Of a DNA stretch of 64,000 nucleotides, positions 2,991 through 22,648 are shown in pieces (positions within the stretch are counted from its first letter, which is position 1; each line of letters starts with the position of its first letter). Under the pieces are notes generated by a model. The model was not told the origin of the DNA, searched no databases, and saw nothing but the letters and a program-made list of their open reading frames with translations. Source of the stretch: an uncultured Lachnospiraceae bacterium (GTDB taxonomy: Bacteria > Bacillota > Clostridia > Lachnospirales > Lachnospiraceae); assembly GCA_950097145.1 (NCBI GenBank), contig CATNCF010000003.1, forward strand, positions 1-64,000. The letters run 5' to 3'. The translations under genes and the position numbers were made by a program.

Positions 2991-3067
2991 GAGTGATGTT
3001 CCTCCTCTGTGAATTTTTTATTATTTTACTTCCTTTTGGAAAATTAATCAAGATTTGTTTTTATGTG

Positions 3068-3096
3068 TTTACATGAAAAAAATAATGAAATATAAT
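3068..3096 (+). promoter_or_regulatory. Sigma-A-type promoter for the AAA-ATPase gene
   Basis: TTTACA at 3068-3073, a 17-bp spacer and a perfect TATAAT at 3091-3096 lie about 50 bases before the start at 3145. Confidence 0.75.
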
Positions 3097-3144
3097 GGAT
3101 AAAGGTAAAAAGAAGTGGCTGCATTGCCTGGAGAGGAGAATGAC

Positions 3145-4826: not shown

Positions 4827-4839
4827 AACAGGAGGGAAC

Positions 4840-8492: not shown

Positions 8493-8527
8493 AGAGAAAG
8501 GAACATACAAAGGAGGAATTGATTGTG

Positions 8528-9730
8528 ATGGACAGGAGAAATGGAAGGAAAACTTTATTTATGGCTTTTGCAGCGATGCTGGCGCCTCTGGCTCTTATAG
8601 GGCTTGTTTCGGTGATGATGCTGCAGTTTGTGGTAAACGGCAGAATATCTCTGTTTGAGGGGACAATGTTTCTGATTATAGTGCCGCTAATGATACTGTT
8701 TATATTGTTCATGGTGGTGAAATGGCAGATAGATAAAAGACAGGGACTTATGGAAAATCTGGATCAGGCCGCTGAGGAGAAACTTGCAGAACAAGAAGGA
8801 AGGCTGGCGGAACAAAGGGCAGAACTTGAGGATATTATGCGTTCCATGAATGGCATGGCAGGCAGCTTGGAGCAGATTATAACCAGTGTGAAAAGCGAGA
8901 CATCATCGCTGCGGGAAGTGTCCGATGGTTTTACCCAGTCTTTTCAAGAAATGGCAGATTCACTGGAACAGGTCAGTGAAGAGGTGAATACTATGGAGGA
9001 ACATACGATTTTCCAGTCCGGGCAGATGGATGAGTTCAGCTCCCGTATTATGGAAATGAACCGTGCAGCCCACGGTATTACAGGGCAGGTTGACAACCTG
9101 GCGGGAAGTACAGATAAGATAAGAGAATACGGTGAAAGCGCCGGACAGGTTATGAAAGAATTGGTGAATCTCTATAAAACAGGAGGCAAGGCTGCTGGAG
9201 AAATGCAGATGCAGACAGATAGAACATATCATTCTGTAATGCAGATAAGTACCGTCACAGAAATTATTTCCAAGATTTCCAGCCAGGCGAACCTGGCGGC
9301 GCTGAATGCCAGTATTGAAGCCTCAAAAGCAGGAGAGAAGGGCAAAGGATTTGCCCTTGTAGCAGATGAAATACGGAGTCTGGCAGATCAGTCACGGGAT
9401 TCTTTGGAACAGGTGAATGCGATTGTCAGTGAATTGATAAATCATGCAAATGAGAATGTTGGGGCCAGCCAGAACATGGCTGACGCACAGGAGAGACAGG
9501 CTAGGAAAATTTCCCAGGCAGGAGAAATTGTGGCTTCTCTGGAACAGGAACTGGAGCAGATCTGCGACGCTATCAGCGGTATTGCCAGTGAAACGGCAGA
9601 GTGGGAAACGGAACAGGAAGTAATTGATACAGATATAGTATCATTGCCCCAGGCGGCAGAGGAAAAAGCAGCTAACAATAAGCAGATTGACCAGATTGGG
9701 AGGTTTAAAATTACAGATTTCCGCAAATAG
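8528..9730 (+). CDS. Methyl-accepting chemotaxis-like protein with minimal ectodomain
   Basis: About 400 residues. Two membrane helices (about residues 10-35 and 45-65) are separated by only some ten residues, so there is no periplasmic-type sensor domain. A coiled-coil region follows, then the signalling hairpin [20 protein letters not shown]...[18 protein letters not shown], the hallmark of MCP cytoplasmic domains. It probably senses a membrane or cytoplasmic signal and may serve regulation rather than swimming; no che or flagellar genes are in the window. AGGAGG at 8511-8516 could serve GTG 8525 or ATG 8528; TTG 8519 is too close. It follows the ABC exporter by 35 bases and may be co-transcribed. 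Confidence 0.88.
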
Positions 9731-9798
9731 AATGCAACAATTTAAAAGGAATGGGACTCTTATTAAGTGAAATGCATTTCAAGGGAGGTGGAGGACAT

Positions 9799-10275
9799 AT
9801 GGAAGAATTTATGCAGTATTATGAAAAAGTCTATCCGCAGATGTACCGAACCGCTTATTATTACATGAGGAATTGCCAGGAGGCGGAGGATGCAGTGCAG
9901 GACGCGGTACTGACAGCATATGAGAAGTTCTACCAGCTTAAGAACAGAGAAAAATTTGCTCCCTGGATCATGCAGATTCTGGTGAATCGGTGCCGGAGGA
10001 GGATGAGAGACTGGTTCCGTAAAGAAGAAGATATTCAGGATATTTCCATATCGGTGCAGGAAGCAATGTCCAGGGAAACCGACTTTGCTATGGCGGCAGC
10101 GGTGAAACAGGTGTTTTGGGAGTTAAAAGAGGAGGAACGCCTGATTGTGGCCTTGTCAGTGTTTGGCGGTTATACCAGCCAGGAAATCGCTGGAATCATG
10201 AAGCAAAATCATAGTACCATCCGTTCCAGGTATCGGAGGGCACTTCAAAAAATGAGAAAGAGGCTGGAGGTGTGA
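9799..10275 (+). CDS. ECF-type RNA polymerase sigma factor
   Basis: 158 residues, the usual ECF size. Region 2 is AEDAVQDAVLTAYEKFYQL (about residues 29-47) with the following PWIMQILVNRCRRRMR. Region 4 is the helix-turn-helix SQEIAGIMKQNHSTIRSRYR near the C-terminus. The start at 9799 is set by GGGAGGTGGAGG just upstream; longer in-frame starts lack such a site. Its stop codon overlaps the start cluster of the next gene, a membrane-anchored beta-propeller protein, a pairing that suggests a regulator/anti-sigma-like relationship. The targets are unknown. Confidence 0.92.
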   Translation: MEEFMQYYEKVYPQMYRTAYYYMRNCQEAEDAVQDAVLTAYEKFYQLKNREKFAPWIMQILVNRCRRRMRDWFRKEEDIQDISISVQEAMSRETDFAMAAAVKQVFWELKEEERLIVALSVFGGYTSQEIAGIMKQNHSTIRSRYRRALQKMRKRLEV

Positions 10276-10277
10276 TG

Positions 10278-12485
10278 ATGCGTAAGAATGATATGGAAAA
10301 GAAATGGAACGATACAGATATCAGGAATTTTCTTCAAAGGAGCGCGAAAGAACAGGAAATTCCAAAGAACCTTCATCCCAGACAAATGGAAGAATGGCTG
10401 AAAGGGCAGACTGCAGATCAGACAGGCAAAGAGGAGAACGGAAAGGGTGAGGAACAATCAAACAGAACAGGGTTGAAGAAAAATAAATATTTCCGCTGGT
10501 GGTGCGGAAGTTTTGCAGCGGCAGCGTGTATGGCCCTTGTATTGTTTGCCGTAGGGAGGAATATAGACTGGAAGCTGGAACTTCCAATGGAACGGATCTC
10601 CCATAGAGCTGGAAGGGACGATGATTCAAACGATGTGGGAGTTGTGACAGAGGAAGGTACCACTTATAAGAAGCTGTACCAGACCTTCGACAGAGTATGG
10701 AAGGAGCAGGAGAAGCTGTATTTTGACCAGAGGGAATATGCTGTGAGTGAAAATACTGACACGGCAGTAGATGATGCTGCGGAGGGCGCATCAGGTGCGG
10801 AACTTGCGGCCCCTGCCGAGGATGCGGCGGAATCTTCAGGTGCAGAAAATGCGGCTCCTGCCGAAGGTATGACAGAATCTGGGGCAGCGGAACAAACCAC
10901 AGAAAAGAGCACAGAGGATTACGGCAGAACCAATCAGCAGGAAGAGGAAGTGGAGGAAGCAGATGTTATTAAGAATGACGGCAGATATCTGTACCAGGCC
11001 ATTCTCCATAAGACGAATGGGCGGTATACGGTAAGGATTGCAGACACGGAAGGCGGTCTGAAAGAAACCGCGCGGGTGGGAAACTTTGAGACGGTTGATA
11101 ATATTTATGTCTGGGAGGATAAGCTTGTTATCCTGGAACCTGGCTGGGCAGAGTCTCCTGGGTCTGACACAGGGAACTCAGAGGATGATAGAATCCCTGG
11201 ATATGCATACTGCCGGATTCATATATATGATATTTCAGACCGGGGCGATCCCAAAGAGGAGCACACCTTTACGGTCAAGGGCAGTTATAAGGATTCCAGA
11301 ATTTATGACGGGTATCTGTATTTCTTCGCATCCTGTGATACCAGCCGGCCGGGAAAAGAGGAGAATATATCTGCATATGTTCCTATGCTGGATGGAACAC
11401 CTATGGCGGAAGATAAGATATTTCTTCCGGAGGATGCCAGCGCGGCGTCTTATCTGGTGATGGTGTCGGTGGACATGGAGCGTCCGGATCGATTTGTGGA
11501 TACCAAAGCTTTGGTAACGGCTGCAGATAAGTTCTATGTAAGCCAGAAAAATATTTATGTGGCGGACAGTCAGAATTTCTCCTATGGAAAAAAAGGGGAA
11601 AATACCGACAGCACCAGGATTTACCGCTATTCCTATAAAGATGGAAGGATGAACAAAGAGGCGGAAGGCGCAGTGAACGGGACATTGCGTGATGATATGG
11701 CTATGAATGAATATCAGGATTATCTGCGTATGGTCACAACGGTTGAAAATGGAACTGTAGAGGAAGTCATTGATGATGTCAGCGGAGAAACCATTGGTTA
11801 TGACACCGCGGAAATTCAAACTTCCAACAGCTTGTATGTGCTGGACCAGAACCTCCAAGTGACCGGCAAAATCGAAGAACTTGCCCGGAATGAGCGGATT
11901 TATTCTGCAAGATTTATGGGTTCTGCAGGTTATTTTGTAACATTCCGGGAGACAGATCCGTTGTTTTCCGTGGATTTATCTAATCCCAGGGAACCAAAGA
12001 TTTTAGGGGAGTTAAAGATCAGCGGATTTTCCGAATATCTGCATTTTTATTCCGATGGACTTCTCTTTGGCCTTGGAATGGAGGCGGATGAAAACACAGG
12101 AGAGACCCATGGAATGAAGCTTTCTATGTTTGATATCTCCAATCCTGCCGATGTAAAGGAACAGTCTAAATTGAACTTGCCAGAGTATGACTATTCAGAC
12201 GCACTGTATGATTACAAAGCAGTACTGATTGACCCTAAGAAAAATCTGTTTGGATTTTCCGTGGAAGGATATGGGGAAGATTATGGGCGCTCCTATTTGC
12301 TGTTCTCCTATGAAAACGGTGAGTTCCAGCAGATTCTGAACATTGACTGCAGTGAAGAGGACCGCTGGGGATGGAGGCTGCGGGGAACCTATATCAAAGA
12401 CAGGTTTTTCCTGATGGCAGAGGATGGAAGGATTGAAGAATACAGCCTGGCAGATAAGAAATGGGTCAGGGCTTTGGAACCGTAA
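10278..12485 (+). CDS. Membrane-anchored beta-propeller protein, putative anti-sigma partner
   Basis: About 735 residues. A cytoplasmic N-terminal stretch of about 75 residues (DIRNFLQRSAKEQEIP...) precedes one membrane helix (CGSFAAAACMALVLFAVG). An Ala/Glu-rich linker with two imperfect copies of GAE-AAPAE follows, then a large C-terminal beta-propeller domain (PF09826 type) beginning near EEADVIKNDGRYLYQA. The short N-terminal segment inside and the sensor-like domain outside fit a regulator that holds the upstream ECF sigma factor, but no classical zinc anti-sigma motif is visible. Possible starts are GTG 10272, ATG 10275 and ATG 10278; GGAGG at 10266-10270 best suits 10278. A homologous arrangement with ECF factors is common in Clostridia. 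Confidence 0.82.
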   Translation: MRKNDMEKKWNDTDIRNFLQRSAKEQEIPKNLHPRQMEEWLKGQTADQTGKEENGKGEEQSNRTGLKKNKYFRWWCGSFAAAACMALVLFAVGRNIDWKLELPMERISHRAGRDDDSNDVGVVTEEGTTYKKLYQTFDRVWKEQEKLYFDQREYAVSENTDTAVDDAAEGASGAELAAPAEDAAESSGAENAAPAEGMTESGAAEQTTEKSTEDYGRTNQQEEEVEEADVIKNDGRYLYQAILHKTNGRYTVRIADTEGGLKETARVGNFETVDNIYVWEDKLVILEPGWAESPGSDTGNSEDDRIPGYAYCRIHIYDISDRGDPKEEHTFTVKGSYKDSRIYDGYLYFFASCDTSRPGKEENISAYVPMLDGTPMAEDKIFLPEDASAASYLVMVSVDMERPDRFVDTKALVTAADKFYVSQKNIYVADSQNFSYGKKGENTDSTRIYRYSYKDGRMNKEAEGAVNGTLRDDMAMNEYQDYLRMVTTVENGTVEEVIDDVSGETIGYDTAEIQTSNSLYVLDQNLQVTGKIEELARNERIYSARFMGSAGYFVTFRETDPLFSVDLSNPREPKILGELKISGFSEYLHFYSDGLLFGLGMEADENTGETHGMKLSMFDISNPADVKEQSKLNLPEYDYSDALYDYKAVLIDPKKNLFGFSVEGYGEDYGRSYLLFSYENGEFQQILNIDCSEEDRWGWRLRGTYIKDRFFLMAEDGRIEEYSLADKKWVRALEP

Positions 12486-12598
12486 GAGCCAGAAGCGGGA
12501 CTGCTAAAACAGCCTGTAAAAGTAGACAGAGGATTTATAGATACTACTAAGCAAAATGGGGCAGTCGGCTAATGCCAATTTCTTCTAATTTTAAAGAA

Positions 12599-12666
12599 AA
12601 ATAGAGATACCCTTCGGAAATGATGCCGTTTAGCATCGGTATATTCTGCGGGGGGTATCTCTATTT
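12599..12666. terminator. Long inverted repeat between convergent genes
   Basis: AAATAGAGATACCC at 12599-12612 pairs perfectly with 12653-12666, enclosing a 40-nt loop that itself holds GATGC...GCATC. A-rich sequence on the left and T-rich on the right fit a bidirectional terminator between the beta-propeller gene and the minus-strand repair gene. A small palindromic repeat is an alternative. Confidence 0.55.
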
Positions 12667-12692
12667 ATAGGAGGAAGCATTGTTTTTGGCAA

Positions 12693-13169
12693 TTATATCC
12701 GAAACAATGACTTTTCATAATCTTTCACATAGTATCGGATATTTTTCCTGCCTTTTTGGATAATGGTATGGCCTTCTTGTTCAAGCAGTTCTTTCTGCCC
12801 TTCAATACCACCGGGATATTTTGCATTTAGTTCCCCATTTGCTTTGAGCGTCCTCCAATAGGGTGTTTTATCATCCGTTCTCTGAAAGCTTGCCCATGCA
12901 GCAATTGAGACAAATATTCCTGCTGTTATCGGCTCTGTAAAATCAGCCCCGCTTTTGTTTGCAAAATATTCTCTTATGATACCTACTGTAAGCAGTTTTC
13001 CAAAGGGCACAAGCCGCATTACTTTGTCATAATCAATGGGCGGAGCAAAATACATTCTGTCTCCTCCATATTTTTCTATGCTTTTTTTATCTGTAATTGT
13101 TTGAAATTTAGGCATATCTTTAGCATCGTTCAACATTGCATTAAAATCTTTTTTCTGTTCATTTCCCAT
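12693..13169 (-). CDS. MGMT-family alkyltransferase-like (ATL) DNA-binding protein
   Basis: 158 residues matching the DNA-binding domain of O6-alkylguanine-DNA alkyltransferases: VPFGKLLTVGIIREYFA (helix-turn-helix region with the arginine-finger area) and LKANGELNAKYPGGIEGQKELLEQEG. The active-site PCHR box is replaced by PYWR, so the acceptor Cys is missing. ATL proteins bind alkylated guanines and hand them to nucleotide excision repair rather than repairing them directly. The start at 13169 follows AGGAGG; a longer in-frame start at 13226 lacks one. The neighbouring AlkD-like gene on the same strand supports an alkylation-damage role. Confidence 0.85.
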   Translation of the reverse strand: MGNEQKKDFNAMLNDAKDMPKFQTITDKKSIEKYGGDRMYFAPPIDYDKVMRLVPFGKLLTVGIIREYFANKSGADFTEPITAGIFVSIAAWASFQRTDDKTPYWRTLKANGELNAKYPGGIEGQKELLEQEGHTIIQKGRKNIRYYVKDYEKSLFRI

Positions 13170-13254
13170 CCGTACGCACCTCCTGCATATATTACTAAGC
13201 ATACCCCAATGTAAAATCATATACAATGAGACAGTTTGAAAAAATGCAGGTTTT

Positions 13255-13938
13255 TTAAATCCTTTTCAGCGTCTTAATTAACGCCTTGTCTTCCATGGAA
13301 ACCTTTAGAGATTCCGTAATTTTCTGCAGCGCCTTATTGTGGGTGAAATCGTCCAAAGAATTTTCTTTCAAAAAAGGCAGCGTCAGTTCAGGGAATTCCC
13401 GGTAGCAGATGGAAACAGCCCAGGCCTGGGCCATCTGCACGTAATAGACCTGTAAAGTTACCTGGCTGACAGCTTCCAGTACTCTGGGAAGATAATCTTT
13501 CGTCACATAGTAATCCAGCATTTGTACCAGGACAAAACGGACTTCAAATTCCCTGGGACTGTGCAGATATTCTCCAAGAAAATTCCAGAATTCTGCGGGC
13601 TGTTCTTTTGCTAATTTAATGGTAGAGCAGGTACTGTCACAGACAGACCAATTGTTGATTTTAGGAAGGAAGGCCCGCAGGAACGGTTCTTTTTCCTGGA
13701 GATCTCCTTTGGCGTAGCCAAGGGTCATGCCCTGAAGCATAATTTCTTCGTAACTGTCATCAGAGGCAGATGTTAAATATTGTTTCCAGTCTCCCTGGGC
13801 AAGCTGTTTCGCTATTTTTCTTAAGGAGGGAATGCGCACGCCCAGGATATGTTCAACGCCTGGCAGCAGACTGGAGGTAAACTTCTGGAATTTAGGTTCC
13901 CGCTGTAATTCCAGCTGCTCTTTGATCCATGCATTCAT
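13255..13938 (-). CDS. AlkD-like DNA alkylation repair protein
   Basis: 227 residues, an all-helical HEAT-repeat-like protein of the DNA alkylation repair family (PF08713): VRIPSLRKIAKQLAQGDW, a segment resembling EEIMLQGMTLGYAK and INNWSVCDSTCSTIK, then EVRFVLVQMLDYYV. AlkD enzymes excise bulky or cationic N3/N7-alkylated purines without base flipping. The start ATG at 13938 follows AAGGGTG. It lies upstream of the ATL gene (85 bases apart) and downstream of the SdpI gene on the same strand. Confidence 0.9.
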   Translation of the reverse strand: MNAWIKEQLELQREPKFQKFTSSLLPGVEHILGVRIPSLRKIAKQLAQGDWKQYLTSASDDSYEEIMLQGMTLGYAKGDLQEKEPFLRAFLPKINNWSVCDSTCSTIKLAKEQPAEFWNFLGEYLHSPREFEVRFVLVQMLDYYVTKDYLPRVLEAVSQVTLQVYYVQMAQAWAVSICYREFPELTLPFLKENSLDDFTHNKALQKITESLKVSMEDKALIKTLKRI

Positions 13939-13969
13939 GATGATTCACCCTTTCTGAATTTTTGTCAGC

Positions 13970-14614
13970 TTATTTATGCCTGATATAATAAATAAAAGAG
14001 TATACAGCCGGAATGACAGCCGCGGCGGCCACAATCACAGAGAAGGACCAGATATTTCCAATATTTAAAATTGTGCTGGCAATCAACAGCAGTCCGGATA
14101 GAATCCAGATCCAGCCTGCGAGACGATGGGTATGATTCCAGTTTTCCGGATCTGCCAGCGTCCAGGGAAGCTTGATCCCGACGGTGTAATTCTGCCGGCA
14201 TTTGGGCATATAATTTCCCGCAAGGAGGAATACTGCACCCAAAAACAGTTTTGCGGCGAACAACACATTAAGATTCATATGGAGAGCATAGGAATAAATT
14301 TGGATGCCGCAAATGAGAGAAACAGCGGGACAGATTAAGAGTGTCAGCTTAAAGAGCTTATCGCTGATTCCCTGCCGTTTTGGATCTGCAGATGTGAAAA
14401 ACGCACAGAAGAGATGTGCCCCAAGGATAAATAAAGGGAGACCAAAAACGGAGAACAGTTTACTGCTCCAGCCGTTTGGAGTGTTGTCAAAGTAAAAATG
14501 TGTGGCCATGGAATCAGGCAGCTTGTTCCACAAAATGATTCCTGCCATCATAGGGATTATGGTGATTAGGCTTGTGACGATAATAAATCCTTTATGTTTT
14601 TTCCATTGTTCCAT
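13970..14614 (-). CDS. SdpI/DUF1648-family membrane protein
   Basis: 214 residues with about six membrane helices. The N-terminal part is DUF1648 (LPDSMATHFYFDNTPNGWSSK, with the typical P-x2-TH-F-G pattern). The C-terminal part matches SdpI (VGIKLPWTLADPENWNHTHRLAGW). In Bacillus subtilis SdpI gives immunity to the toxin SdpC and relays its presence by sequestering the repressor SdpR. It starts 4 bases after the stop of the SdpR-like regulator, so the two form one operon. No SdpC-like toxin gene is visible nearby, so it may protect against foreign toxins. Confidence 0.9.
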   Translation of the reverse strand: MEQWKKHKGFIIVTSLITIIPMMAGIILWNKLPDSMATHFYFDNTPNGWSSKLFSVFGLPLFILGAHLFCAFFTSADPKRQGISDKLFKLTLLICPAVSLICGIQIYSYALHMNLNVLFAAKLFLGAVFLLAGNYMPKCRQNYTVGIKLPWTLADPENWNHTHRLAGWIWILSGLLLIASTILNIGNIWSFSVIVAAAAVIPAVYSFIYYIRHK

Positions 14615-14618
14615 CGCT

Positions 14619-14882
14619 TTATGCTCCTTTCAAATCAGACAGCCAAAGCATGACGTCTTCGATTACAGAAGTGTTTAATTCATAATAAACAAAGTTTTTT
14701 TCTTTTTGCTCGTAGACCAGATCCGCTTTTTTCAAAATGTTCAGGTGGTAAGATATCGTTGCGCCAGTCATGTCGAAATGGCTCCCAATTTCTCCGGCAG
14801 ACATCCGGCCCTGTTTTAAGAGAATCAGGATCTCACGCCGGCCCCCGTCAGAAAGAGCCTTAAATGTTTCTGCAAATCCCAT
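14619..14882 (-). CDS. SdpR-type ArsR-family autorepressor
   Basis: 87 residues, a winged-helix ArsR-family protein: LSDGGRREILILLKQGRMSA and the recognition helix region MTGATISYHLNILKKADL. No metal-binding Cys pattern is seen, as in SdpR. It leads the SdpR-SdpI operon, and its promoter is flanked by two inverted repeats that are the likely operators, so autorepression is expected. Confidence 0.92.
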   Translation of the reverse strand: MGFAETFKALSDGGRREILILLKQGRMSAGEIGSHFDMTGATISYHLNILKKADLVYEQKEKNFVYYELNTSVIEDVMLWLSDLKGA

Positions 14883-14899
14883 AAGAATGCCTCCAGATA

Positions 14900-14978
14900 G
14901 TATTTAGAAATATTTCTAAATACTACTATATGCCCAGGAAAAGTTCTTGTCAACAGGTATTTAGAAAAATATCTAAAT
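14900..14978 (-). promoter_or_regulatory. SdpRI promoter with two palindromic operators
   Basis: On the minus strand TTGACA (14948-14953), a 17-bp spacer and TATAGT (14925-14930) form a near-consensus promoter. Two copies of ATTTAGA-N6-TCTAAAT flank it: 14902-14921 (part of a perfect 24-bp palindrome, 14900-14923, overlapping the predicted transcription start) and 14959-14978, upstream of the -35 box. The centres are 57 bp apart. Binding by the SdpR-like regulator is inferred. Confidence 0.88.
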
Positions 14979-15414
14979 TTCTATAGCAGTTTAGTCTGTG
15001 CCATTCCCAAAGTTTTTTATTCTGTTTGTTACTGAAAATTTTAAAGGTGCAGATAAACTTTTTTAAGAAGAAAAATTTCCATCAGGAGTAGTCACATGAA
15101 AAAATTTTGGTACAATTTTAGACTTATTGTTGGGATGTGGATTAACACATAAACATATTATTTTTCATAAATTAAATATGAATGGTATACTTTTGAAATA
15201 AAAGTCGAATACTATGTATGATGTTTTGGAAGAAAATAGTGTAAAAAATATATTTTACAATCTATGGTCATAAATTTAAAAGATATAAACAATATACTAT
15301 GCAAATATGCCACAATTTATCAAAAAATTATTAATAATAATTGACAGGATTGGACCGAACTATTACAATAAAATAAAATGGTAAAATATAAAAAAGAAAG
15401 GATTGAGGGGGAAC
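14979..15414. other. AT-rich intergenic stretch
   Basis: Markedly AT-rich, non-coding sequence between the SdpRI promoter and the next small gene. Apart from the promoter at 15341-15369 I see no gene, RNA or strong repeat. The base composition differs from the housekeeping genes of the window and marks the left edge of the accessory island. Confidence 0.6.
15341..15369 (+). promoter_or_regulatory. Sigma-A-type promoter
   Basis: TTGACA (15341-15346), 17-bp spacer, TACAAT (15364-15369), 45 bases before the start of the small ORF at 15415. Confidence 0.75.
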
Positions 15415-15594
15415 ATGAAGCATATTGAAAAAGAAAACCTGCGCCCAATTGTATATGGATTTGTAAGCGATGATTATGTATCTGATTTCAATTTGTTAAG
15501 AGGGCATCATCTGGAGAATGATTTAGATTTTGAGGATGACTGTGACGAGGTAGGCTTTCTTATAAAAAAAAATGAAAACAGAAAGTCTAATTAA
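15415..15594 (+). CDS. Small acidic protein of unknown function
   Basis: 59 residues, not recognised. It is acidic in the middle (ENDLDFEDDCDEVGF), basic at the end and has no membrane segment. Three signs support it as a real gene: a good promoter, a GAGGGGG ribosome site 6 bases before the ATG (an earlier in-frame start at 15403 has none), and a terminator-like hairpin right after the stop. It could belong to the neighbouring accessory system, for example as a regulator or inhibitor, but nothing in the sequence shows this. Confidence 0.55.
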   Translation: MKHIEKENLRPIVYGFVSDDYVSDFNLLRGHHLENDLDFEDDCDEVGFLIKKNENRKSN

Positions 15595-15597
15595 TAG

Positions 15598-15658
15598 ATA
15601 TGATACCTTAAAAGAAGGATTTGGTTTATTGCCGTATCGCTTATTCAAGGTATCATAT
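15598..15658 (+). terminator. Hairpin after the small acidic ORF
   Basis: ATATGATACCTT (15598-15609) pairs perfectly with 15647-15658. The loop is 37 nt and the following sequence is only moderately T-rich, so it may be a terminator or a structured RNA end. Confidence 0.5.
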
Positions 15659-15735
15659 TGTTGTTCATAGTATTCTTTTTTTCTTTAATAAAATTAAGTG
15701 TGCCAGGAAGTTGGGGTTTTTCAAGGTGATTGATA

Positions 15736-15921
15736 CTACGTGTAATGCCTAATGGCCCAAATAAGCGTCTTTGAGTGTACCTTGTGAGACGGCCGCATGG
15801 CCATAATGGGATGTTTCAGAGAGGGTATAGTTTGCGGCATATTGGATTGTTCAATACGATATTTTTTGGCATTGTCATTAAAAGTAGGTAATTGTAGAAT
15901 TTGGTGGTTTTGTTGTTTCAT
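15736..15921 (-). CDS. Possible small basic protein, divergent from the HEXXH gene
   Basis: A 61-residue reading frame beginning MKQQNHQILQLPTF, rich in Lys, His and Arg, with no known family. An AGGTGATT ribosome site precedes the ATG at 15921. Upstream on the minus strand, TTCAGG / 17 bp / TATATA could act as a promoter sharing the palindrome at 16047-16061 with the divergent peptidase gene. That arrangement is typical of a regulator or antitoxin beside its target, but the protein shows no recognisable DNA-binding motif. Confidence 0.35.
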   Translation of the reverse strand: MKQQNHQILQLPTFNDNAKKYRIEQSNMPQTIPSLKHPIMAMRPSHKVHSKTLIWAIRHYT

Positions 15922-16044
15922 TTTGTAATCACCTGTTTTTGTCATATAAATGTTTGTGTTGAATCACCAAATAAAAATTAACGATAAGAACAAATGTTAA
16001 GTCAGAACTGCTTCATGAAGATGCGTATGGATTCAGTTATATAT

Positions 16045-16072
16045 TTGTCAGCTATGCTGACCTGAATATAGT
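16045..16072 (+). promoter_or_regulatory. Promoter with palindromic operator for the HEXXH/FRG genes
   Basis: TTGTCA (16045-16050), a 16-bp spacer and TATAGT (16067-16072) form a promoter pointing to the gene at 16129. The palindrome GTCAGC-TAT-GCTGAC (16047-16061) overlaps the -35 box and spacer, where a bound repressor would block RNA polymerase. The same palindrome lies within a possible divergent promoter for the 61-residue ORF. Confidence 0.65.
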
Positions 16073-16128
16073 GTCAAGATGTGGGAGTGAGTTTTGAAAG
16101 GAAAGATACGGATAAAGGGGAGAAAAAT

Positions 16129-16968
16129 ATGCAGTCAAAGTCTGGATCTAATTCTGAATGGGAATTTGATATCTTAAATATGAGAGTGCTCCATTTTGAG
16201 AAGCTGGTACCGTTACATAAAGAACAAAGTGACAAAAAGCAAGAAAAAACTACTGAGAAAGAGAATGATTCTGCCTCTTTACAAAAAGAGGAAGCTGCAC
16301 AAGAATCCATAGAAATGCCTGAAAAGAACCGATACTTTTCCAGGTTCTGCAGCCTTGGATATTATGATCAAATGTCATATGTAAAGGCAAAAGATGAGAG
16401 AGCTATATTGGATTATAAGCATTGCTTTTTAACAAAATATCCGTATAAAAAGAGTGAACAGCGCATTATGACGAATCAGATGTTTACCCTTTTGACAAGG
16501 AGAAAAAATGAAAAGCAGGATCAGCAGCAAGAAAAAAGTAGCCCGTTTCCCCAAATTAATGAAGAGGAACCTTTTGAAATAGAGGATAAGGAAAAAAAGA
16601 GCAGGCAGCCATTTCTAGGGATTATCTTAGTAACAGTGGGAAAGGGTTCTGGTGAGGAAGAAGAAAATAATATTGGCTCCCAACCATGTGATTTAAAACA
16701 AGTTTATAAAACATTATTAAGAGAATATCAAAATGCTTTTTATGAAATAGTAAATAAAAAAAATGAAATTGAAGAGGAGTCAAAGATTTGTTATAAGGTT
16801 TTCTATACGCCGAATTGTGCGGATCTGTGTATTGTGATGAGGACAGACACCCTTCAAAATATTTACAATGTTAAGCAACAGATTTCCGATTGGAAGTCAG
16901 GCCAGATAAGGGGAGCAGTCTGTCACACAACTTCTTACACATTGTTTGAATTGCCTGATAATGAATAG
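16129..16968 (+). CDS. Unknown protein, N-terminal part of a UAG-interrupted HEXXH peptidase frame
   Basis: 279 residues from the ATG at 16129 (GGGGAG upstream; the longer start at 16081 sits on the predicted transcription start). I recognise no family. It has a charged, low-complexity Lys/Glu linker (residues 30-70) and a C-terminal alpha/beta unit (FLGIILVTVG ... CYKVFYTPNCADLCIVMRTD). It ends at a single TAG (16966-16968). The same frame then stays open for 35 codons without any ATG or ribosome site and continues as the large HEXXH protein, so the two were probably one protein of about 1,400 residues. The alternative is two genes with a poorly initiated second one. Confidence 0.6.
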   Translation: MQSKSGSNSEWEFDILNMRVLHFEKLVPLHKEQSDKKQEKTTEKENDSASLQKEEAAQESIEMPEKNRYFSRFCSLGYYDQMSYVKAKDERAILDYKHCFLTKYPYKKSEQRIMTNQMFTLLTRRKNEKQDQQQEKSSPFPQINEEEPFEIEDKEKKSRQPFLGIILVTVGKGSGEEEENNIGSQPCDLKQVYKTLLREYQNAFYEIVNKKNEIEEESKICYKVFYTPNCADLCIVMRTDTLQNIYNVKQQISDWKSGQIRGAVCHTTSYTLFELPDNE

Positions 16969-17073
16969 TATCAATCAGTTGAAAAAAATAAGCTGCTTGG
17001 AAAAAATAATGGAGTTTTCCTAGAGTTACGAATCATTTGTTCCGAACAAATAATAAAAGCGATACAAGAAAGT

Positions 17074-20000
17074 TTGCCCGTTTCCTGTAATTTGTATGGC
17101 ATCACAGGAAGCGGGCGGTATTCTTTGGAACTTGATTTTGAAACTTTTGCAGAATTATATCCCTTTATCTGGCAGATAAAATCCGGTGATGAAACAATGA
17201 ATCAGATAACAGCTTTCTCAGATCTGCAGAAGCTGTTTAAAGAGAATGTCTCTCAAATACAATGTACTTATATGAGGGTGAAATATAATGCAGAACAAAC
17301 GAAAAGCAATTCTGCAAGTGGAGAAGAACCATTAGATTCCAAAGAAGATGGGGATATTCTTGGAAATTCAACGGCACTTCAATTAAAAGACAGGGAATTG
17401 ATAGAGTATTTTGAGTGGAAGACTATTAATTTTCCCAAACAAATCATTGTAAAGAAGCATCCATTCAAAAGTCAATTGAGAGAACAGAAAAGCCTGTTAA
17501 AAGAGCTGTTTTATACTTATAACGATTATTGGTTTCGCCAGAGTTCCTGGTGGAAAGGGGTTGTTTTTTATGCCCAGTTAGAAAGTGTGATGAATGGGGT
17601 ACAGCAGTATGAATTGCTGGCAAATGAATTGGAGAATTATTCCGAAAGGGAAGCTGTTATACGGCAGACATGCAGTGATATTAGCCAGGCGATTTTCAGT
17701 ATCAATAATTTTAATAAGCTGATGCAGTCTGTTAATCAGTATGTTGTAAATATTCCAAATTATGAGATGCAGACCAAAGTCAATATTGAGAAATATTTGA
17801 TGGCATACACGATGTATTTGTTCGAAATCAGCAGAAATTATTACAACAGCCATAAGGAGGAAGGGGCGGAGCGGATTTTGCCTTTTTTTGCGTTGGATTT
17901 TAATGCTACCAGAATTGAGGCGCATACGTTATTTGGAAGGATCTCTGTATTAGATGATGAGGAAGATTCCCAAACAAGCCGATTAGATTTAAAACCATGG
18001 AATACGCTGCTTGCTATAAGATGCCCAAATTATCAGTGGTTTGCAAATGCGTATCATGTGCTGCCAATGATTACGCATGAGATTTCCCATAATTTCCGTT
18101 ATATTGGCCAAAAAAAAAGAAATGAGTTTGTAATCAGTTTCTTGATTGGGCATTTATCAAAATACATGATGGAACAGATATTAAAGAGAACAAATGTCGG
18201 ATGCAAAGTGGGACACTATGAGCCCAGGGAACGTTTTTTCCTGATGCATATAGAGAAGGTGCTGAAGGAGGAATTCCAAACATTTATTGAGAAACATGCC
18301 AGCCATATCAAATTAAAAGATATTGGAATATATTTTCTGAAACAATTTTGGAAAATTACTGGCTTACGAGAGATGAAATACCAGAAAAATGAGCGGAATG
18401 AAACCATTTATACAGAACTGCTCCAGCTTTCTTATCTTGTAAAGGCACCCGTTTTACGGCCAGAGGATATCGTGGGCAGTGTACCTTCTGAGAATGATGA
18501 GGTATGGAAGCACACGCTGCTTTTGAATCTTTTATTGGATTTGCTCAAACCGAAGGAGGATATGCAGTTGTGGAAAGAATGGGAAGAGCAGATCAAGGCA
18601 TGGAAGAATGGTTCTTCCTTTGACGAGGAATATGAGGGGATTGTACAAGTTGCGGAGAAGCTGCTTGAGCAGCGTAGTTCTCAGAATAAGATAGGGATAA
18701 AGTATATTCACTATATCCTTCCTTGCTTTCTTGACATATGGAAGAAGGCAGACAAAGAGGTTTGGGAAGAGGAACAAGCAGAAACAAAGCAAATGAAGCT
18801 AAAGGAAAAGTATGCTGAATTTGAAGAGGTTGTAACTGCCTTAGAGGGAAGAAAAATTAAAAAAGCGATACAATTGCTCCAGGAATGGTCAGAACAAAGC
18901 GCCAATACATCAAAAGGAATAGAAAAAAATAAGAAAGGACAAGATGAAACAATACGATTTTATCAGAAGCTCTATGAATTTTGTTATAGGCGTTCCATCA
19001 TTGAGAGCCATGTAAAAATAGGGAAACAAGAGAAAAATTATTTGTATTTTCCAGAGAACAATCACGCATCAGCCTTTGCGGAAAAAGTACATAATTCTAT
19101 GCATGAAGATTATTTGGCAAGGCTGAAAGACAGGTATTGTTTTGAAAACCAGTGGATTTTATTGGAGGAAAATCAGAGTCTTTTGATGTCTTTGGGAATC
19201 ATTAATGGAGAACCTAAACAATTTGTGGATAATTACAGCCAGGCTTTGCAGGGGACATCGGAAATTGAATTAAAAAGCATTGTCCAGGATCAGGTGGCAA
19301 ATTATGAAGAGATCTTTGCAGATCTTGGAATGTGCATGGCGTTCCGGTTTACAGCATATGGGTATTTTATGTATAGCATCCATATAATTCGGAAAGAACG
19401 TGAAATTCCAAGAAGAGCATCAAAAAACTTAGTTGCAGACAGGATCCGTACTTTACTGTTGTCTTATTATCGGAAAGAAGTCCAAGACAAAGAAAATAAA
19501 GACAAATTCCACGGAAAATTACAGTTGTATTGGGAAGATTTAAAGGGTTGTTTAAGACAACAAAATGAGTGTTTTAAGGAGGAATTAAAGAAAGAGGAGG
19601 AGTTAAAGAATAAAAAGGAGTCCGGTAATTTAGAAGGCTCTGTAGATGAGTTTATGTGTATGTTTCGCTCATTTTTAGACAAGCAAAAGTTTCAGGAAAT
19701 TAAGGTGGCGCAGCTTGACAAGATCGTATATTTTATCAGTAATTTTGAACAGACATATAGGAAAAATAGGGAATTATTAAGGCAGATCGAGATTTTAAGA
19801 TGGATGCGTTCCCTATATCAAGACCTGAATCTTGAGTCGGAATTAGAAGAGGACAGGGATAAATTGGTGGAAGAACTATATTCACATGTCCTTGAAGTAA
19901 AAAAACAGGTGCTAAAGGGCAATGATGGGGAGTCGCTGGATCCAAAGGAAGAAAAAGAATTGCTCCGAAAAAATTTGTACCAAGAGGTTTCGCATACGAG

Positions 20001-20334
20001 TGATCCAGCAGAAAAAATTACACCTAAAGAATTATGGATTCAAAAGTGCTATCAGGATAAAAATATCGAAGATATAGGAAAGTACTATAATGATTACAGC
20101 TATTCGTTTGTTATAGAGCAAAAGAAATTAGGCAGGTGCTTAAACCATCAGAATCTCTTTGTGTTTGATTATTATGAGAAAATGTTTGATCGTATCCAAA
20201 ATATCAAAAAGGATATAGATAAGGAAGATAATCCCAAAATAATACTGGACTTATTGTTTCAGGATGACATTTCCCCAAAACAGGAGGATCAGGCAGGGGA
20301 GCCGTGTGGTAAAGAAGAGGAGGGGGAGCAATAA
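17074..20334 (+). CDS. Large predicted zinc metallopeptidase (HEXXH), C-terminal part of the interrupted frame
   Basis: 1,086 residues counted from the TTG at 17074, the first start-like codon; there is no ribosome site before it, and the frame is continuous with the upstream ORF except for one UAG at 16966. The hallmark is THEISHNFRYIG (HEISH at residues 335-339), a zinc-peptidase active site. NYEEIFADLGM (residues 743-752) could supply the third zinc ligand (Glu746) with the supporting Asp750, as in gluzincins with an E-x3-D motif. The rest is mostly helical and charged, with long predicted coiled-coil-like stretches (500-620, 810-1000) and no signal peptide, so it should act in the cytoplasm. 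It is followed directly by the FRG-domain gene. The family is not one I can name. Confidence 0.65.
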   Translation: MPVSCNLYGITGSGRYSLELDFETFAELYPFIWQIKSGDETMNQITAFSDLQKLFKENVSQIQCTYMRVKYNAEQTKSNSASGEEPLDSKEDGDILGNSTALQLKDRELIEYFEWKTINFPKQIIVKKHPFKSQLREQKSLLKELFYTYNDYWFRQSSWWKGVVFYAQLESVMNGVQQYELLANELENYSEREAVIRQTCSDISQAIFSINNFNKLMQSVNQYVVNIPNYEMQTKVNIEKYLMAYTMYLFEISRNYYNSHKEEGAERILPFFALDFNATRIEAHTLFGRISVLDDEEDSQTSRLDLKPWNTLLAIRCPNYQWFANAYHVLPMITHEISHNFRYIGQKKRNEFVISFLIGHLSKYMMEQILKRTNVGCKVGHYEPRERFFLMHIEKVLKEEFQTFIEKHASHIKLKDIGIYFLKQFWKITGLREMKYQKNERNETIYTELLQLSYLVKAPVLRPEDIVGSVPSENDEVWKHTLLLNLLLDLLKPKEDMQLWKEWEEQIKAWKNGSSFDEEYEGIVQVAEKLLEQRSSQNKIGIKYIHYILPCFLDIWKKADKEVWEEEQAETKQMKLKEKYAEFEEVVTALEGRKIKKAIQLLQEWSEQSANTSKGIEKNKKGQDETIRFYQKLYEFCYRRSIIESHVKIGKQEKNYLYFPENNHASAFAEKVHNSMHEDYLARLKDRYCFENQWILLEENQSLLMSLGIINGEPKQFVDNYSQALQGTSEIELKSIVQDQVANYEEIFADLGMCMAFRFTAYGYFMYSIHIIRKEREIPRRASKNLVADRIRTLLLSYYRKEVQDKENKDKFHGKLQLYWEDLKGCLRQQNECFKEELKKEEELKNKKESGNLEGSVDEFMCMFRSFLDKQKFQEIKVAQLDKIVYFISNFEQTYRKNRELLRQIEILRWMRSLYQDLNLESELEEDRDKLVEELYSHVLEVKKQVLKGNDGESLDPKEEKELLRKNLYQEVSHTSDPAEKITPKELWIQKCYQDKNIEDIGKYYNDYSYSFVIEQKKLGRCLNHQNLFVFDYYEKMFDRIQNIKKDIDKEDNPKIILDLLFQDDISPKQEDQAGEPCGKEEEGEQ

Positions 20335-21426
20335 ATGATTTCAAAATTTTATGCGTCAACGCTGGCAGAGTTTTATGGTGCGCTGAATGATGTGAAAGAG
20401 GATTTTAAAGATAACGGGAAAGAGTTACGGTTTTGGTTTCGCGGACATGGCCACAATTATTATAACCTGATTCCAACCTTGTACCGCGGTCAGTTTTTTC
20501 AGAAAAATGGAAATAATACCTATACACAGATGAATTTGAAAGAGGATTACCGCTATCAGCATTTTAAAGCAAGGGCATTCCACTATGTAGATTCCAATCC
20601 GGTCTATAAAAGTGAATGGCAGGAAATTTACCAGCACCATTTTGGGCATACAAGGCTGATGGACTGGACGGAATCGGCAAGAACGGCATTGTCTTTTGCC
20701 TTGGAACCATTTATCGACACCCGGGCTAATAAAGAATTGGAATATAAACGCTATCATTGCACCCCTTGCGTGTGGGTGCTAAATCCATATGAGTTAAATA
20801 AAAAAGTATATGGTTATATGGGTGAGAAACTTCCAACTGACATAAAAAAATCGAGAACCATGTGCAGATCGTGGAAAGATTGGCTTCCTATCTGTGAAGA
20901 GATAAAGAATCATAGGGAGATTTATTTTGATGGAAACAAAAGTGATCTGGAAATTAAAGGGGTCATCAGTCTTTGTGCCTTGGAAGATTATAGAAAGTCT
21001 TTTGGGGAGGGCTTTAAAAGAGCAGTGTATACCTTTGAATTCAATCCCTTTTATTATCTGGCATTGAGGATTTATTCCGATGCGGTACCGTATAGTATTG
21101 AGACATATGACCAGGAAATTTTGCCGCCGATGGCACTTCTGCATCCCTATCACAGTAACCGTATTCGTACCCAGCGGGGGGCGTTTACCATGTTTCCCAA
21201 TTATTTTCTTGAGGAAGGGGTAGAGAAAAAATGTAAAAACAGGAACAGGGATATTCGGAACATGGAAGAACAAGATTATATCAGCGGCTGCCTAAAAGTA
21301 ATTTATATTATCAATCCTCATGAAATCGCAAGAGAATTGATGCTCAGCGGCGAACGCCGATCTGAGTTATATCCTGATATTCAGACTTACGCAGATATGA
21401 TTGAGACACAGAAATACTATTGTTAA
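20335..21426 (+). CDS. FRG-domain protein
   Basis: 363 residues. The FRG domain (PF08867) occupies the N-terminal part: ELRFWFRGHGHNYYNLIP with the eponymous Phe-Arg-Gly (residues 34-36), TLYRG, and the second conserved block HHFGHTRLMDWTESARTALS (about residues 102-121). The biochemical activity of FRG domains is not established; they are found in accessory and phage-linked contexts. The ATG directly follows the TAA of the HEXXH gene with a GGAGGGGGAG ribosome site inside that gene, so the two are translationally coupled. This strict coupling is the best evidence that peptidase and FRG protein work together. Confidence 0.85.
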   Translation: MISKFYASTLAEFYGALNDVKEDFKDNGKELRFWFRGHGHNYYNLIPTLYRGQFFQKNGNNTYTQMNLKEDYRYQHFKARAFHYVDSNPVYKSEWQEIYQHHFGHTRLMDWTESARTALSFALEPFIDTRANKELEYKRYHCTPCVWVLNPYELNKKVYGYMGEKLPTDIKKSRTMCRSWKDWLPICEEIKNHREIYFDGNKSDLEIKGVISLCALEDYRKSFGEGFKRAVYTFEFNPFYYLALRIYSDAVPYSIETYDQEILPPMALLHPYHSNRIRTQRGAFTMFPNYFLEEGVEKKCKNRNRDIRNMEEQDYISGCLKVIYIINPHEIARELMLSGERRSELYPDIQTYADMIETQKYYC

Positions 21427-21522
21427 TGGTGGAAATGTTTGTTCCAGAGGCTTTTGTTTGACACACAAGCAGGAAACATTTATAATAAACATCAGAAATT
21501 TGAAATAGAAAGAGGTGACACG

Positions 21523-22648
21523 ATGGTTGAATTAGATCAGTTCAAAACAACTTTGAACACATACAAAGAACCGTTAGTGGAAGTGAGGGATTCACTTTGA
21601 CCTGGCGAACAAAGAACAGAGAATCCAGGAATTAGAACGGGAAATGGAAGCGCCGGATTTTTGGGATGATACAGAGCGTTCCCAGAGTAAAATGAAGGAG
21701 CTGAAAAGCTTAAAGGATGATGTAGAGACTTATGCCAGTCTGACAGGGCAGTATGAAGATATCGAAACTTTATTGGAAATGGGCTATGAAGAAAATGACG
21801 CTTCCCTGATACCAGAAATCCAGGAAGCCCTTGCAGAGTTTGAGGAGACTTTTGAAACGATCAGGATAAAAACTCTGCTGTCAGGAGAATATGACGGGGA
21901 AAACGCCATTCTTTCCCTCCATGCAGGAGCCGGGGGAACAGAATCCTGTGACTGGAACAGTATGTTGTTCCGCATGTATAAGCGCTGGGCGGAGAATAAA
22001 GGATTTACCGTAGAGGTTCTGGATTCTCTGGACGGTGAGGAAGCAGGCATTAAGTCCATAACCTTTGAGGTTCGGGGAGAAAATGCCTATGGCTATTTAA
22101 AGTCTGAGAAAGGCGTGCACCGGCTGGTGCGCATTTCACCTTTTAATGCGGCAGGCAAGCGGCAGACCTCTTTTGCTTCCTGTGATGTGATGCCGGATAT
22201 TGAAAAAGACCTGGATATTGAGGTGAAAGACGACGAGCTGCGCATTGACACATATCGTTCCAGCGGCGCCGGAGGACAGCATATTAATAAAACTTCCTCC
22301 GCAATCCGCATTACCCATCTTCCCACCGGGATTGTGGTACAATGCCAGAATGAGCGGTCCCAGCATATGAATAAGGATAAAGCAATGCAGATGCTGAAGG
22401 CGAAGCTGTATCTTTTGAAACAGGAAGAAAATGAGAAGAAGGCTGCGGATATCCGTGGAGAGGTGACAGAAATCGGCTGGGGCAACCAGATCCGTTCCTA
22501 TGTGATGCAGCCCTATACTATGGTGAAGGACCACCGCACCAATGCAGAGACCGGAAATGTAGACAGTGTGATGGACGGAAAAATAGATTTGTTTATGAAT
22601 GCTTATTTAAAATGGAAAAGCCTTAGTATTGGTATAGCAGAAAATTAA
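21523..22648 (+). CDS. prfB: Peptide chain release factor 2, with programmed +1 frameshift
   Basis: RF2 recognises UGA and UAA and releases the finished peptide. The gene starts at ATG 21523 behind AGAGGTGA, runs 25 codons to an in-frame TGA (21598-21600) and must shift +1 to continue as DLANKEQRIQELEREMEAPDFW. The total is about 374 residues, normal for RF2. The peptidyl-transferase motif GAGGQHIN and the surrounding RSSGAGG are present, and VRISPFN carries the SPF anticodon-like tripeptide for UGA reading. The accessory island ends about 100 bases upstream of this conserved gene. Confidence 0.95.
21583..21601 (+). promoter_or_regulatory. RF2 autoregulatory frameshift site
   Basis: GTG AGG GAT TCA CTT TGA C: the slippery CTT codon before TGA-C is preceded by an internal Shine-Dalgarno-like GTGAGGG, the layout known from prfB in many bacteria. 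Low RF2 lets the ribosome pause at UGA and shift +1, so RF2 controls its own synthesis. The sequence differs from the E. coli AGGGGGTATCTTTGAC in the two codons before CTT. Confidence 0.93.

What the first reader, a model, noticed from the sequence alone, without database searches (positions are those of the whole stretch)
16045..21426. Candidate undescribed system: HEXXH peptidase frame coupled to an FRG-domain protein
An AT-rich island between the SdpRI operon and prfB holds its own promoter with a palindromic operator, a very large helical cytoplasmic protein with a zinc-peptidase site (HEISH, 18076-18090, plus a possible E-x3-D third-ligand motif in EEIFADL), and an FRG-domain gene whose ATG directly abuts the peptidase stop codon. 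FRG domains have no settled activity and occur in accessory contexts. A large cytoplasmic protease coupled to an FRG effector would be consistent with an abortive or defence module, with one partner activating the other. The function is inference; the gene pairing and motifs are seen.
Basis: partly seen in the sequence, partly recalled or inferred. Interest (0 to 1): 0.8.

Follow-up and report, generated by a model that had tools for sequence, protein, structure and literature searches.

The report
Conserved zinc-protease and FRG-enzyme gene pair
A bacterium carries a small inserted block of genes that pairs a giant, previously unclassified putative zinc protease with an enzyme of a family suspected of acting against phages; relatives keep the two side by side or fused into one protein, although in this genome the protease gene is interrupted by a stop codon.

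Summary
The large frame is split by an in-frame TAG (16966-16968); a close relative (L006) is intact at 1456 aa. All five loci with a full-length homologue (window, L006, G184, G225, G296; down to 17-20% identity) have an FRG gene directly downstream. Two further loci fuse a HEXXH protein and FRG in one chain. HExxH and a distal E-x-x-[AT]-D-x-x-M motif are kept in 8 of 8 members. No Pfam, NCBIfam or PADLOC model covers the large protein. FRG is assigned in print to the ADP-ribosyltransferase superfamily; my model agrees only weakly. The unit is a cassette: window 15393-21427 (small acidic ORF, large gene, FRG) is shared with L006 at another site, and an about 6.5-kb island is absent from 16 of 16 same-genus prfB loci examined. 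Most likely it is an abortive-type defence module in which the peptidase gates the FRG effector. Coupling is well supported; activation by cleavage, NAD+ chemistry and phage defence are inference. Structure prediction of the peptidase failed (pLDDT 34). The palindromic operator is not conserved. The window copy may be inactive.

The parts
14989..21457 (.). Genomic island of about 6.5 kb between the sdpR promoter region and the prfB promoter; edges to within about 15 bases
   Evidence: blastn of window 3000-22200 against 16 same-genus prfB-upstream regions: 0 of 16 match between 14984 and 21454; in G1091 (L151) the two flanks lie 15 bases apart
15341..15369 (+). Promoter-like site TTGACA-17-TACAAT (11 of 12) ahead of the small ORF; consensus match only
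15415..15594 (+). Small acidic ORF (59 aa) with a Shine-Dalgarno-like AGGGGG; conserved in L006 (79% aa identity, dN/dS 0.13). Possible third component
   Evidence: no relative found near the distant homologues
15598..15658 (+). Inverted repeat (15-nt arms, 93% complementary, 31 nt between) after the small ORF, also visible in L006; possible terminator or attenuator
   Evidence: I11; L006 sequence printed
16129..16968 (+). 5' part of the large gene (279 aa), ends at an in-frame TAG; holds the first N-terminal modules
   Evidence: intact single frame in L006
16969..20334 (+). 3' part of the large gene (1121 codons; first common start codon TTG at 17074): a module of predicted beta-alpha-beta-beta-alpha-beta order, helical region, HEXXH region, long helical C-terminal part (secondary structure from a low-confidence model)
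18076..18090 (+). HEISH, candidate zinc site (HExxH in 8 of 8 members; followed by an invariant R)
19306..19326 (+). EEIFADL, candidate third zinc ligand; E..[AT]D..M in 8 of 8 members, 163-410 residues after HEXXH
20335..21426 (+). FRG-domain protein (363 aa), ATG directly after the TAA of the large gene; R36-G37, Q100-H101, T106-R107, D110-W111, F121, Q280 invariant in 43 aligned FRG proteins

Best explanation
The island carries a mobile conflict (probably anti-phage) cassette. A very large cytoplasmic protein has N-terminal small alpha/beta modules, which I take as the sensor; a gluzincin-like zinc peptidase (HEXXH ... ExxAD) in its middle; and a long helical C-terminal part. It is translated together with an FRG effector, a divergent member of the ADP-ribosyltransferase superfamily. 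Proposed working: at rest the FRG protein is held inactive in complex with the large protein; on infection the sensor part switches on the peptidase, which cleaves the FRG protein, itself or an inhibitor, and frees the FRG enzyme to consume NAD+ or modify a host target, stopping phage growth by dormancy or death. Shown here: conserved adjacency, fusions, conserved catalytic-type motifs, compatible trees, presence of the block at different sites. Inferred: peptidase activity, cleavage as the switch, FRG chemistry, sensing, defence. In this genome the large gene is interrupted, so this copy may be off or making two fragments. A 59-aa acidic protein that travels with the cassette in the two closest copies may be a brake or a trigger.
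For: FRG directly downstream in 5 of 5 loci with a full-length homologue (window, L006, G184, G225, G296), overlapping, abutting or within 33 nt. Fusion of a HEXXH protein and FRG in one chain at two loci (L047 1302 aa, L048 1219 aa). Split and fused large proteins related by profile comparison (E 1e-5 for the single comparison, probability 82%, columns spanning HEXXH). HExxH 8 of 8 and E..[AT]D..M 8 of 8. FRG tree of 43 rows: split forms one clade (100/100), and split+fused+one stand-alone FRG (L060) group at 97/93; the large-protein tree has the same G225/G296 and window/L006 pairings. FRG matches Pfam FRG and PADLOC PDC-S15, E 1.2e-23. Foldseek of the FRG model (pLDDT 72.9): ranks 1-7 are ADP-ribosylating toxins or an Rhs-toxin complex, though the best E is only 0.6. 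Print, passages read: Frg placed in the ART superfamily, potential antiviral effector and NADase; peptidase-released effectors proposed in other prokaryotic conflict systems. Block shared with L006 at another site and absent from 16 of 16 same-genus prfB loci examined. Purifying selection against L006: dN/dS 0.13 (small ORF), 0.25 and 0.26 (large gene before the TAG and from 17074), 0.13 (FRG).
Against: No structure for the peptidase: AF2 with two sequences gave mean pLDDT 34.3. No sequence match of its profiles to any solved protease. Foldseek E-values for the FRG model are not significant and query TM-scores are about 0.15. A plain profile search did not bring the fusions among its best 12 rows, where shuffled controls stood, and the FRG tree warns of long branches for both fusions and L060. 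The large protein was found in no plasmid, phage or viral-contig scan (the viral scans use short peptide patterns), and none of 55 viral FRG loci holds it, so mobility rests on chromosomal loci. Neighbours of the split loci in G184, G225 and G296 look by eye like housekeeping genes or transposases, not a defence island; only L006 has a nearby DUF4007 gene. The lone relative in G491 has no adjacent FRG. The window copy is interrupted, and the 34 codons between TAG and TTG show dN/dS 0.59. The HEXXH-to-E spacing (163-410) is unusual for known gluzincins (recalled).
Confidence: 0.42

Rival explanations
1. Roles reversed: the FRG protein senses infection or makes an ADP-ribose-type signal, and the large peptidase is the effector that degrades host or phage proteins.
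For: The large protein carries a fully conserved active-site-type motif in 8 of 8 members. Iyer et al. 2022 list Frg with RES among signal-generating ART domains as well as a possible NADase (passages). A lone relative without adjacent FRG exists (G491).
Against: FRG without the large protein is common (FRG in 49 of 397 family genomes against 4 of 397 with the large protein), which suggests that FRG is the generic effector and the large protein the specific controller.
Confidence: 0.2
2. Toxin-antitoxin-like module: FRG is the toxin, and the large protein or the 59-aa acidic protein is the antitoxin or its processing factor; phage defence is secondary.
For: Overlapping or abutting genes; a small acidic co-travelling ORF under purifying selection (dN/dS 0.13).
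Against: The small ORF was not found near the three distant homologues; a 1200-1450-aa antitoxin would be unusual (recalled); fusions put both parts in one chain.
Confidence: 0.15
3. The large protein is not a working protease: HEXXH is part of a scaffold, and the pair serves another purpose (regulation, stress response).
For: Structure prediction failed; no convincing match to a protease family or structure (weak Tox-MPTase2 match in 1 of 8 members, E 0.041); inactive zincin-like domains are reported in conflict systems (passage).
Against: Both His, the Glu and a distal E..[AT]D are kept in 8 of 8 proteins that share only 13-20% identity with L006, the window apart, which is hard to explain without a metal site.
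Confidence: 0.15
4. For this window only: the locus is a decaying copy with no present function.
For: In-frame TAG between the N-terminal modules; the first common start codon afterwards (TTG 17074) lies inside the next module; dN/dS 0.59 in the 34 codons between.
Against: dN/dS is alike before the TAG and from 17074 on (0.25 and 0.26) and there is no second stop in 1420 codons, so the break is recent, an assembly error, or tolerated. The genome is a draft (80 contigs, 82.8% complete).
Confidence: 0.4

Closest known systems
FRG domain family (Pfam PF08867) / PADLOC candidate PDC-S15 / Frg clade of the ART superfamily
   Same: The downstream gene is a member by sequence and keeps the FRG motif.
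   Different: It belongs to a longer subfamily (about 363-375 aa) that stands directly behind a large HEXXH protein; of 19 further FRG ORFs whose contexts I read, 2 are fused to a HEXXH protein and 17 stand without a large one.
Peptidase-gated effectors of prokaryotic conflict systems (VMAP ternary, EACC1, NucA-trypsin; Kaur et al. 2020, PMC7159879, passages read)
   Same: A peptidase encoded with, or fused to, a potentially harmful effector, so that proteolysis could set it free.
   Different: Those use mostly trypsin- or caspase-like peptidases, many with NTPase or GTPase components; here a HEXXH protein and FRG, and Pfam shows no NTPase in the three genes.
Gluzincin metallopeptidases (M4, M13, M48 types; recalled)
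   Same: HEXXH followed by E-x-x-A-D.
   Different: 163-410 residues between the motifs and no convincing sequence similarity.
Abortive NAD+-depleting systems such as Thoeris (abstract start seen in the listing)
   Same: Would work alike if FRG is an NADase.
   Different: Different enzymes, and a protease instead of a nucleotide messenger as the presumed switch.

Membership tests
Pfam FRG (PF08867) | Score over the curated cut-off | tested here: met
   59.6 bits against 25, E 5.7e-16
PADLOC PDC-S15 | Match to the family models | tested here: met
   12 PDC-S15 models, best E 1.2e-23
PADLOC PDC-S15 | Anti-phage activity | not testable with these tools
   Called still uncharacterized in a 2025 paper (passage read)
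ADP-ribosyltransferase (ART) superfamily | ART fold | tested here: inconclusive
   FRG model pLDDT 72.9; Foldseek ranks 1-7 are ADP-ribosylating toxins or an Rhs-toxin complex, but best E 0.6 and query TM about 0.15
ART superfamily | NAD+-dependent chemistry | not testable with these tools
   Proposed in print only (passages)
Gluzincin metallopeptidase | HEXXH | tested here: met
   8 of 8 members, one HEXXH each
Gluzincin metallopeptidase | Downstream Glu ligand with E-x-x-x-D | tested here: met
   E..[AT]D..M in 8 of 8; that it binds zinc is inferred
Gluzincin metallopeptidase | Peptidase fold or sequence similarity to a known clan | tested here: inconclusive
   AF2 failed, pLDDT 34.3; no convincing sequence match
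MoxR-vWA / VMAP ternary conflict systems | NTPase or GTPase plus vWA component | tested here: not met
   No such Pfam match in the three genes
Any named PADLOC system (large protein) | Model match outside FRG | tested here: not met
   0 families for the window pieces; in 8 members only PDC-S15 models (in the 2 fusions) plus one SngC match at 0.0083 in 1 member
Toxin-antitoxin module | Toxicity of one gene neutralised by the other | not testable with these tools
   Needs an experiment

The most novel reading that the evidence does not exclude
An undescribed family of immune systems in which a giant sensor-peptidase with an unclassified zinc site gates an FRG (ART-type) effector by proteolysis, occurring both as a two-gene operon and as a single-chain fusion (one genome carries both forms), and moving as a cassette with a small acidic third protein.
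Probability: 0.4. Interest if true: 0.75.

Novelty: new variant of a known kind. Interest (0 to 1): 0.62.

Why it matters
FRG genes are common defence candidates (49 of 397 family genomes) with no worked-out way of being controlled that I found. A conserved protease-like partner, adjacent or fused, gives a concrete and testable hypothesis for control of at least one FRG branch, and would add a zinc-peptidase type to proteolytically gated bacterial immunity, argued in the paper I read mainly for trypsin- and caspase-like peptidases. The large protein matches no family convincingly in the four libraries searched.

Tried and rejected
Palindromic operator at 16047-16061: rejected as a functional claim because it is not kept in L006. 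Palindromic repeats at 14900-14978: these belong to the sdpR promoter region and are kept in G1091, which lacks the island. Structure of the large protein: A7 (two sequences) gave pLDDT 34.3; not searched further. Plasmid, phage and viral scans for the large protein: nothing (for the fusion). For the fusion, searches matched only its FRG end in the rows listed (20 of 295 plasmid records, 8 of 8 phage records). FRG alone matches 71 plasmid and 2 phage records. The genome-contig scan finds close relatives only and gave one, L006. G100 hit (E 7e-4, 27%): dropped, as it did not return with the profile. N-terminal modules as GGDEF, cyclase or Lrp-type (RAM/ACT) domains: considered from motif resemblance (recalled), but no convincing match in PDB or Pfam, and the two modules do not match each other by profile (E 0.12); only the predicted strand/helix order of one module (block pLDDT 35-63) suggests a ferredoxin-like fold, so this stays a guess. 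Rfam: one chance-level match far below its cut-off. A first hmmsearch with the split profile ranked the lone G491 protein first (2.6e-7; best of 900 shuffles 0.11) but the fusions were not among the 12 rows printed; only the profile-profile comparison links them. For the FRG structure alignment I used 41 of the 55 viral FRG loci, and for the FRG tree 19 of 55. Literature: nine full-text searches listed no paper that I recognised as describing this pair; I judged most from the listing only. Burroughs and Aravind 2020, the key paper on Frg effectors, is not held, so prior description there cannot be excluded.
Full report
What is in the window. Between the SdpRI genes (SdpI and ArsR-type matches) and prfB lies an AT-rich stretch (29-38% GC in its 1-kb blocks against 40-48% in most others). 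It holds a small ORF (15415-15594), a large frame and an FRG gene (20335-21426). The FRG gene matches Pfam FRG (E 5.7e-16) and PADLOC PDC-S15 (E 1.2e-23); the large protein matches no Pfam, NCBIfam, PHROG or PADLOC family convincingly.

A correction. The large frame is not a single ORF: one in-frame TAG at 16966-16968 divides it into 279 and 1121 codons. The close relative L006 (record title: uncultured Lachnospiraceae; 73-76% identity) has one intact gene of 1456 aa. Selection looks alike before the stop and from 17074 on (dN/dS 0.25 and 0.26 against L006); the 34 codons between give 0.59, on few changes. The 1420 codons contain no other stop. So the interruption is recent, tolerated, or an error in a draft genome (80 contigs, 82.8% complete). 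I cannot tell which.

Homologues and pairing. With a profile of five rows, 4 of 397 genomes sampled from the family have the large protein, the window's own included; 2 of 392 from the order (own plus a weak hit in G491); 1 of 378 from the phylum (own only) (the samples overlap). The three distant family members (G184, G225, G296; 17-20% identity to L006) are 1180-1203 aa and each is followed at once by an FRG gene. So FRG is directly downstream in 5 of 5 loci with a full-length homologue; the genes overlap in L006, G184 and G225, abut in the window and lie 21-33 nt apart in G296, depending on the start codon. The weak relative in G491 (1062 aa) has no FRG beside it.

Fusions. A search of the same 397 family genomes with the FRG profile found 49 genomes with 54 matches. 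I fetched 20 of these contexts; an FRG ORF was recovered in 19. Two are single proteins with a HEIYH motif and a C-terminal FRG domain: L047 (G225, 1302 aa) and L048 (G349, 1219 aa); Pfam places FRG at residues 1006-1097 of the first and 920-1019 of the 1216-aa reading of the second. They rank 5th and 7th among the 54 FRG matches, after the four split pairs and with one stand-alone FRG between them. G225 carries both a split pair and a fusion. In the other 17 contexts, among the ORFs printed, the only HEXXH was in a 553-aa ORF beside the FRG of L062, which I did not classify. Split and fused large proteins are related by profile-profile comparison (E 1e-5, probability 82%, aligned over the HEXXH region); in a plain profile search the fusions were not among the best 12 rows, where shuffled controls stood.

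Active-site evidence. Across eight proteins (five split, two fused, one lone) each has exactly one HEXXH; the two His, the Glu and a following Arg are invariant. An E..[AT]D..M motif lies 163-410 residues downstream in all eight. This is the pattern of a gluzincin (recalled), with an unusually long insertion. The fold is untested: AF2 with the two sequences at hand gave mean pLDDT 34.3, and profiles find no solved protease.

FRG. Iyer et al. 2022 (PMC9503650; passages read) place Frg in the ADP-ribosyltransferase superfamily and suggest an antiviral effector and possible NADase. My model (43 sequences, pLDDT 72.9) has its first seven Foldseek matches among ADP-ribosylating toxins or an Rhs-toxin complex, but the best E is 0.6 and query TM-scores are about 0.15: compatible, not proof. 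In a tree of 43 FRG domains, the five split ones form a clade (100/100) and group with the two fused ones and one stand-alone FRG (97/93); the program warns of long branches for both fusions and the stand-alone one. The large-protein tree gives the same G225/G296 and window/L006 pairings and leaves G184 unresolved.

Mobility. Of 21 same-genus genomes searched with prfB (own included), I fetched 16 upstream regions. None of the 16 has DNA matching the island; in G1091 the sdpR and prfB promoter regions lie 15 bases apart. Three of the 16 regions are short (3.0, 6.4 and 10.0 kb). L006 shares window 15393-21427 (three blocks, 76-84% identity) and nothing beyond it in the stretch compared, at a different site. 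The shared block begins just before the small ORF and ends at the FRG stop, so the three genes travel together in this pair of genomes. I saw no integrase match in the island's genes and no repeat joining its two ends. The large protein was not found in plasmids, phages or viral contigs; FRG alone was (55 viral loci, none with the large protein).

How it most likely works. The fusions, the tight coupling and the compatible trees say that the two proteins act together. A common logic for a conserved peptidase beside a potentially harmful effector is controlled release: Kaur et al. 2020 (PMC7159879; passages read) argue for proteolytic release in other prokaryotic conflict systems. I therefore propose sensor part, peptidase, FRG release, growth arrest or death of the infected cell. 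Only the coupling, the motifs and the cassette behaviour are shown; each biochemical step is inference. The order of action (peptidase activates FRG, or the reverse) is open.

Novelty. FRG effectors and peptidase-gated effectors are both known ideas; a large HEXXH protein as the conserved partner of an FRG branch, with split and fused forms, did not come up in nine full-text searches of the library held. The most relevant earlier paper (Burroughs and Aravind 2020) could not be read. I rate it a new variant of a known kind.

Noticed in passing
L047 2126-6034 (-) and L048 982-4641 (+): Single-chain fusions of a HEXXH protein with a C-terminal FRG domain; G225 carries both a fusion and a split pair.
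   Followed up: yes
L016 6376-9564 (-): Lone 1062-aa relative (HEALH ... NEAVTD) with no FRG beside it, in a stretch with a serine-recombinase-like gene and an AlbA-like gene (labels read by eye).
   Followed up: partly
window 15598-15658 and the following 470 nt: Inverted repeat and a stretch without a clear gene between small ORF and large gene, conserved in L006 (76% over 15393-16533); on the minus strand (15736-15945) an apparently eroded small frame resembles the same stretch in L006 (by eye).
   Followed up: partly
L006 5198-6046: DUF4007 gene (PF13182, E 7e-69) about 355 bases before the shared block; DUF4007 is linked to DNA phosphorothioation systems (recalled).
   Followed up: partly
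L058, L062, L063: Stand-alone FRG genes next to AAA/RloB-like, OLD-plus-helicase (Gabija-like) and DUF262-like genes (labels read by eye, not run through a library).
   Followed up: no
L142-L157: DNA matching window 13.3-13.9 kb lies upstream of prfB in either orientation, or gives no match, in same-genus genomes: a variable spot next to prfB.
   Followed up: no
phage record NC_049386 (Peduovirus P22H1) 31447-31848: FRG-type match near the end of a 32.7-kb P2-like phage genome, a place where such phages often carry defence cargo (recalled).
   Followed up: no
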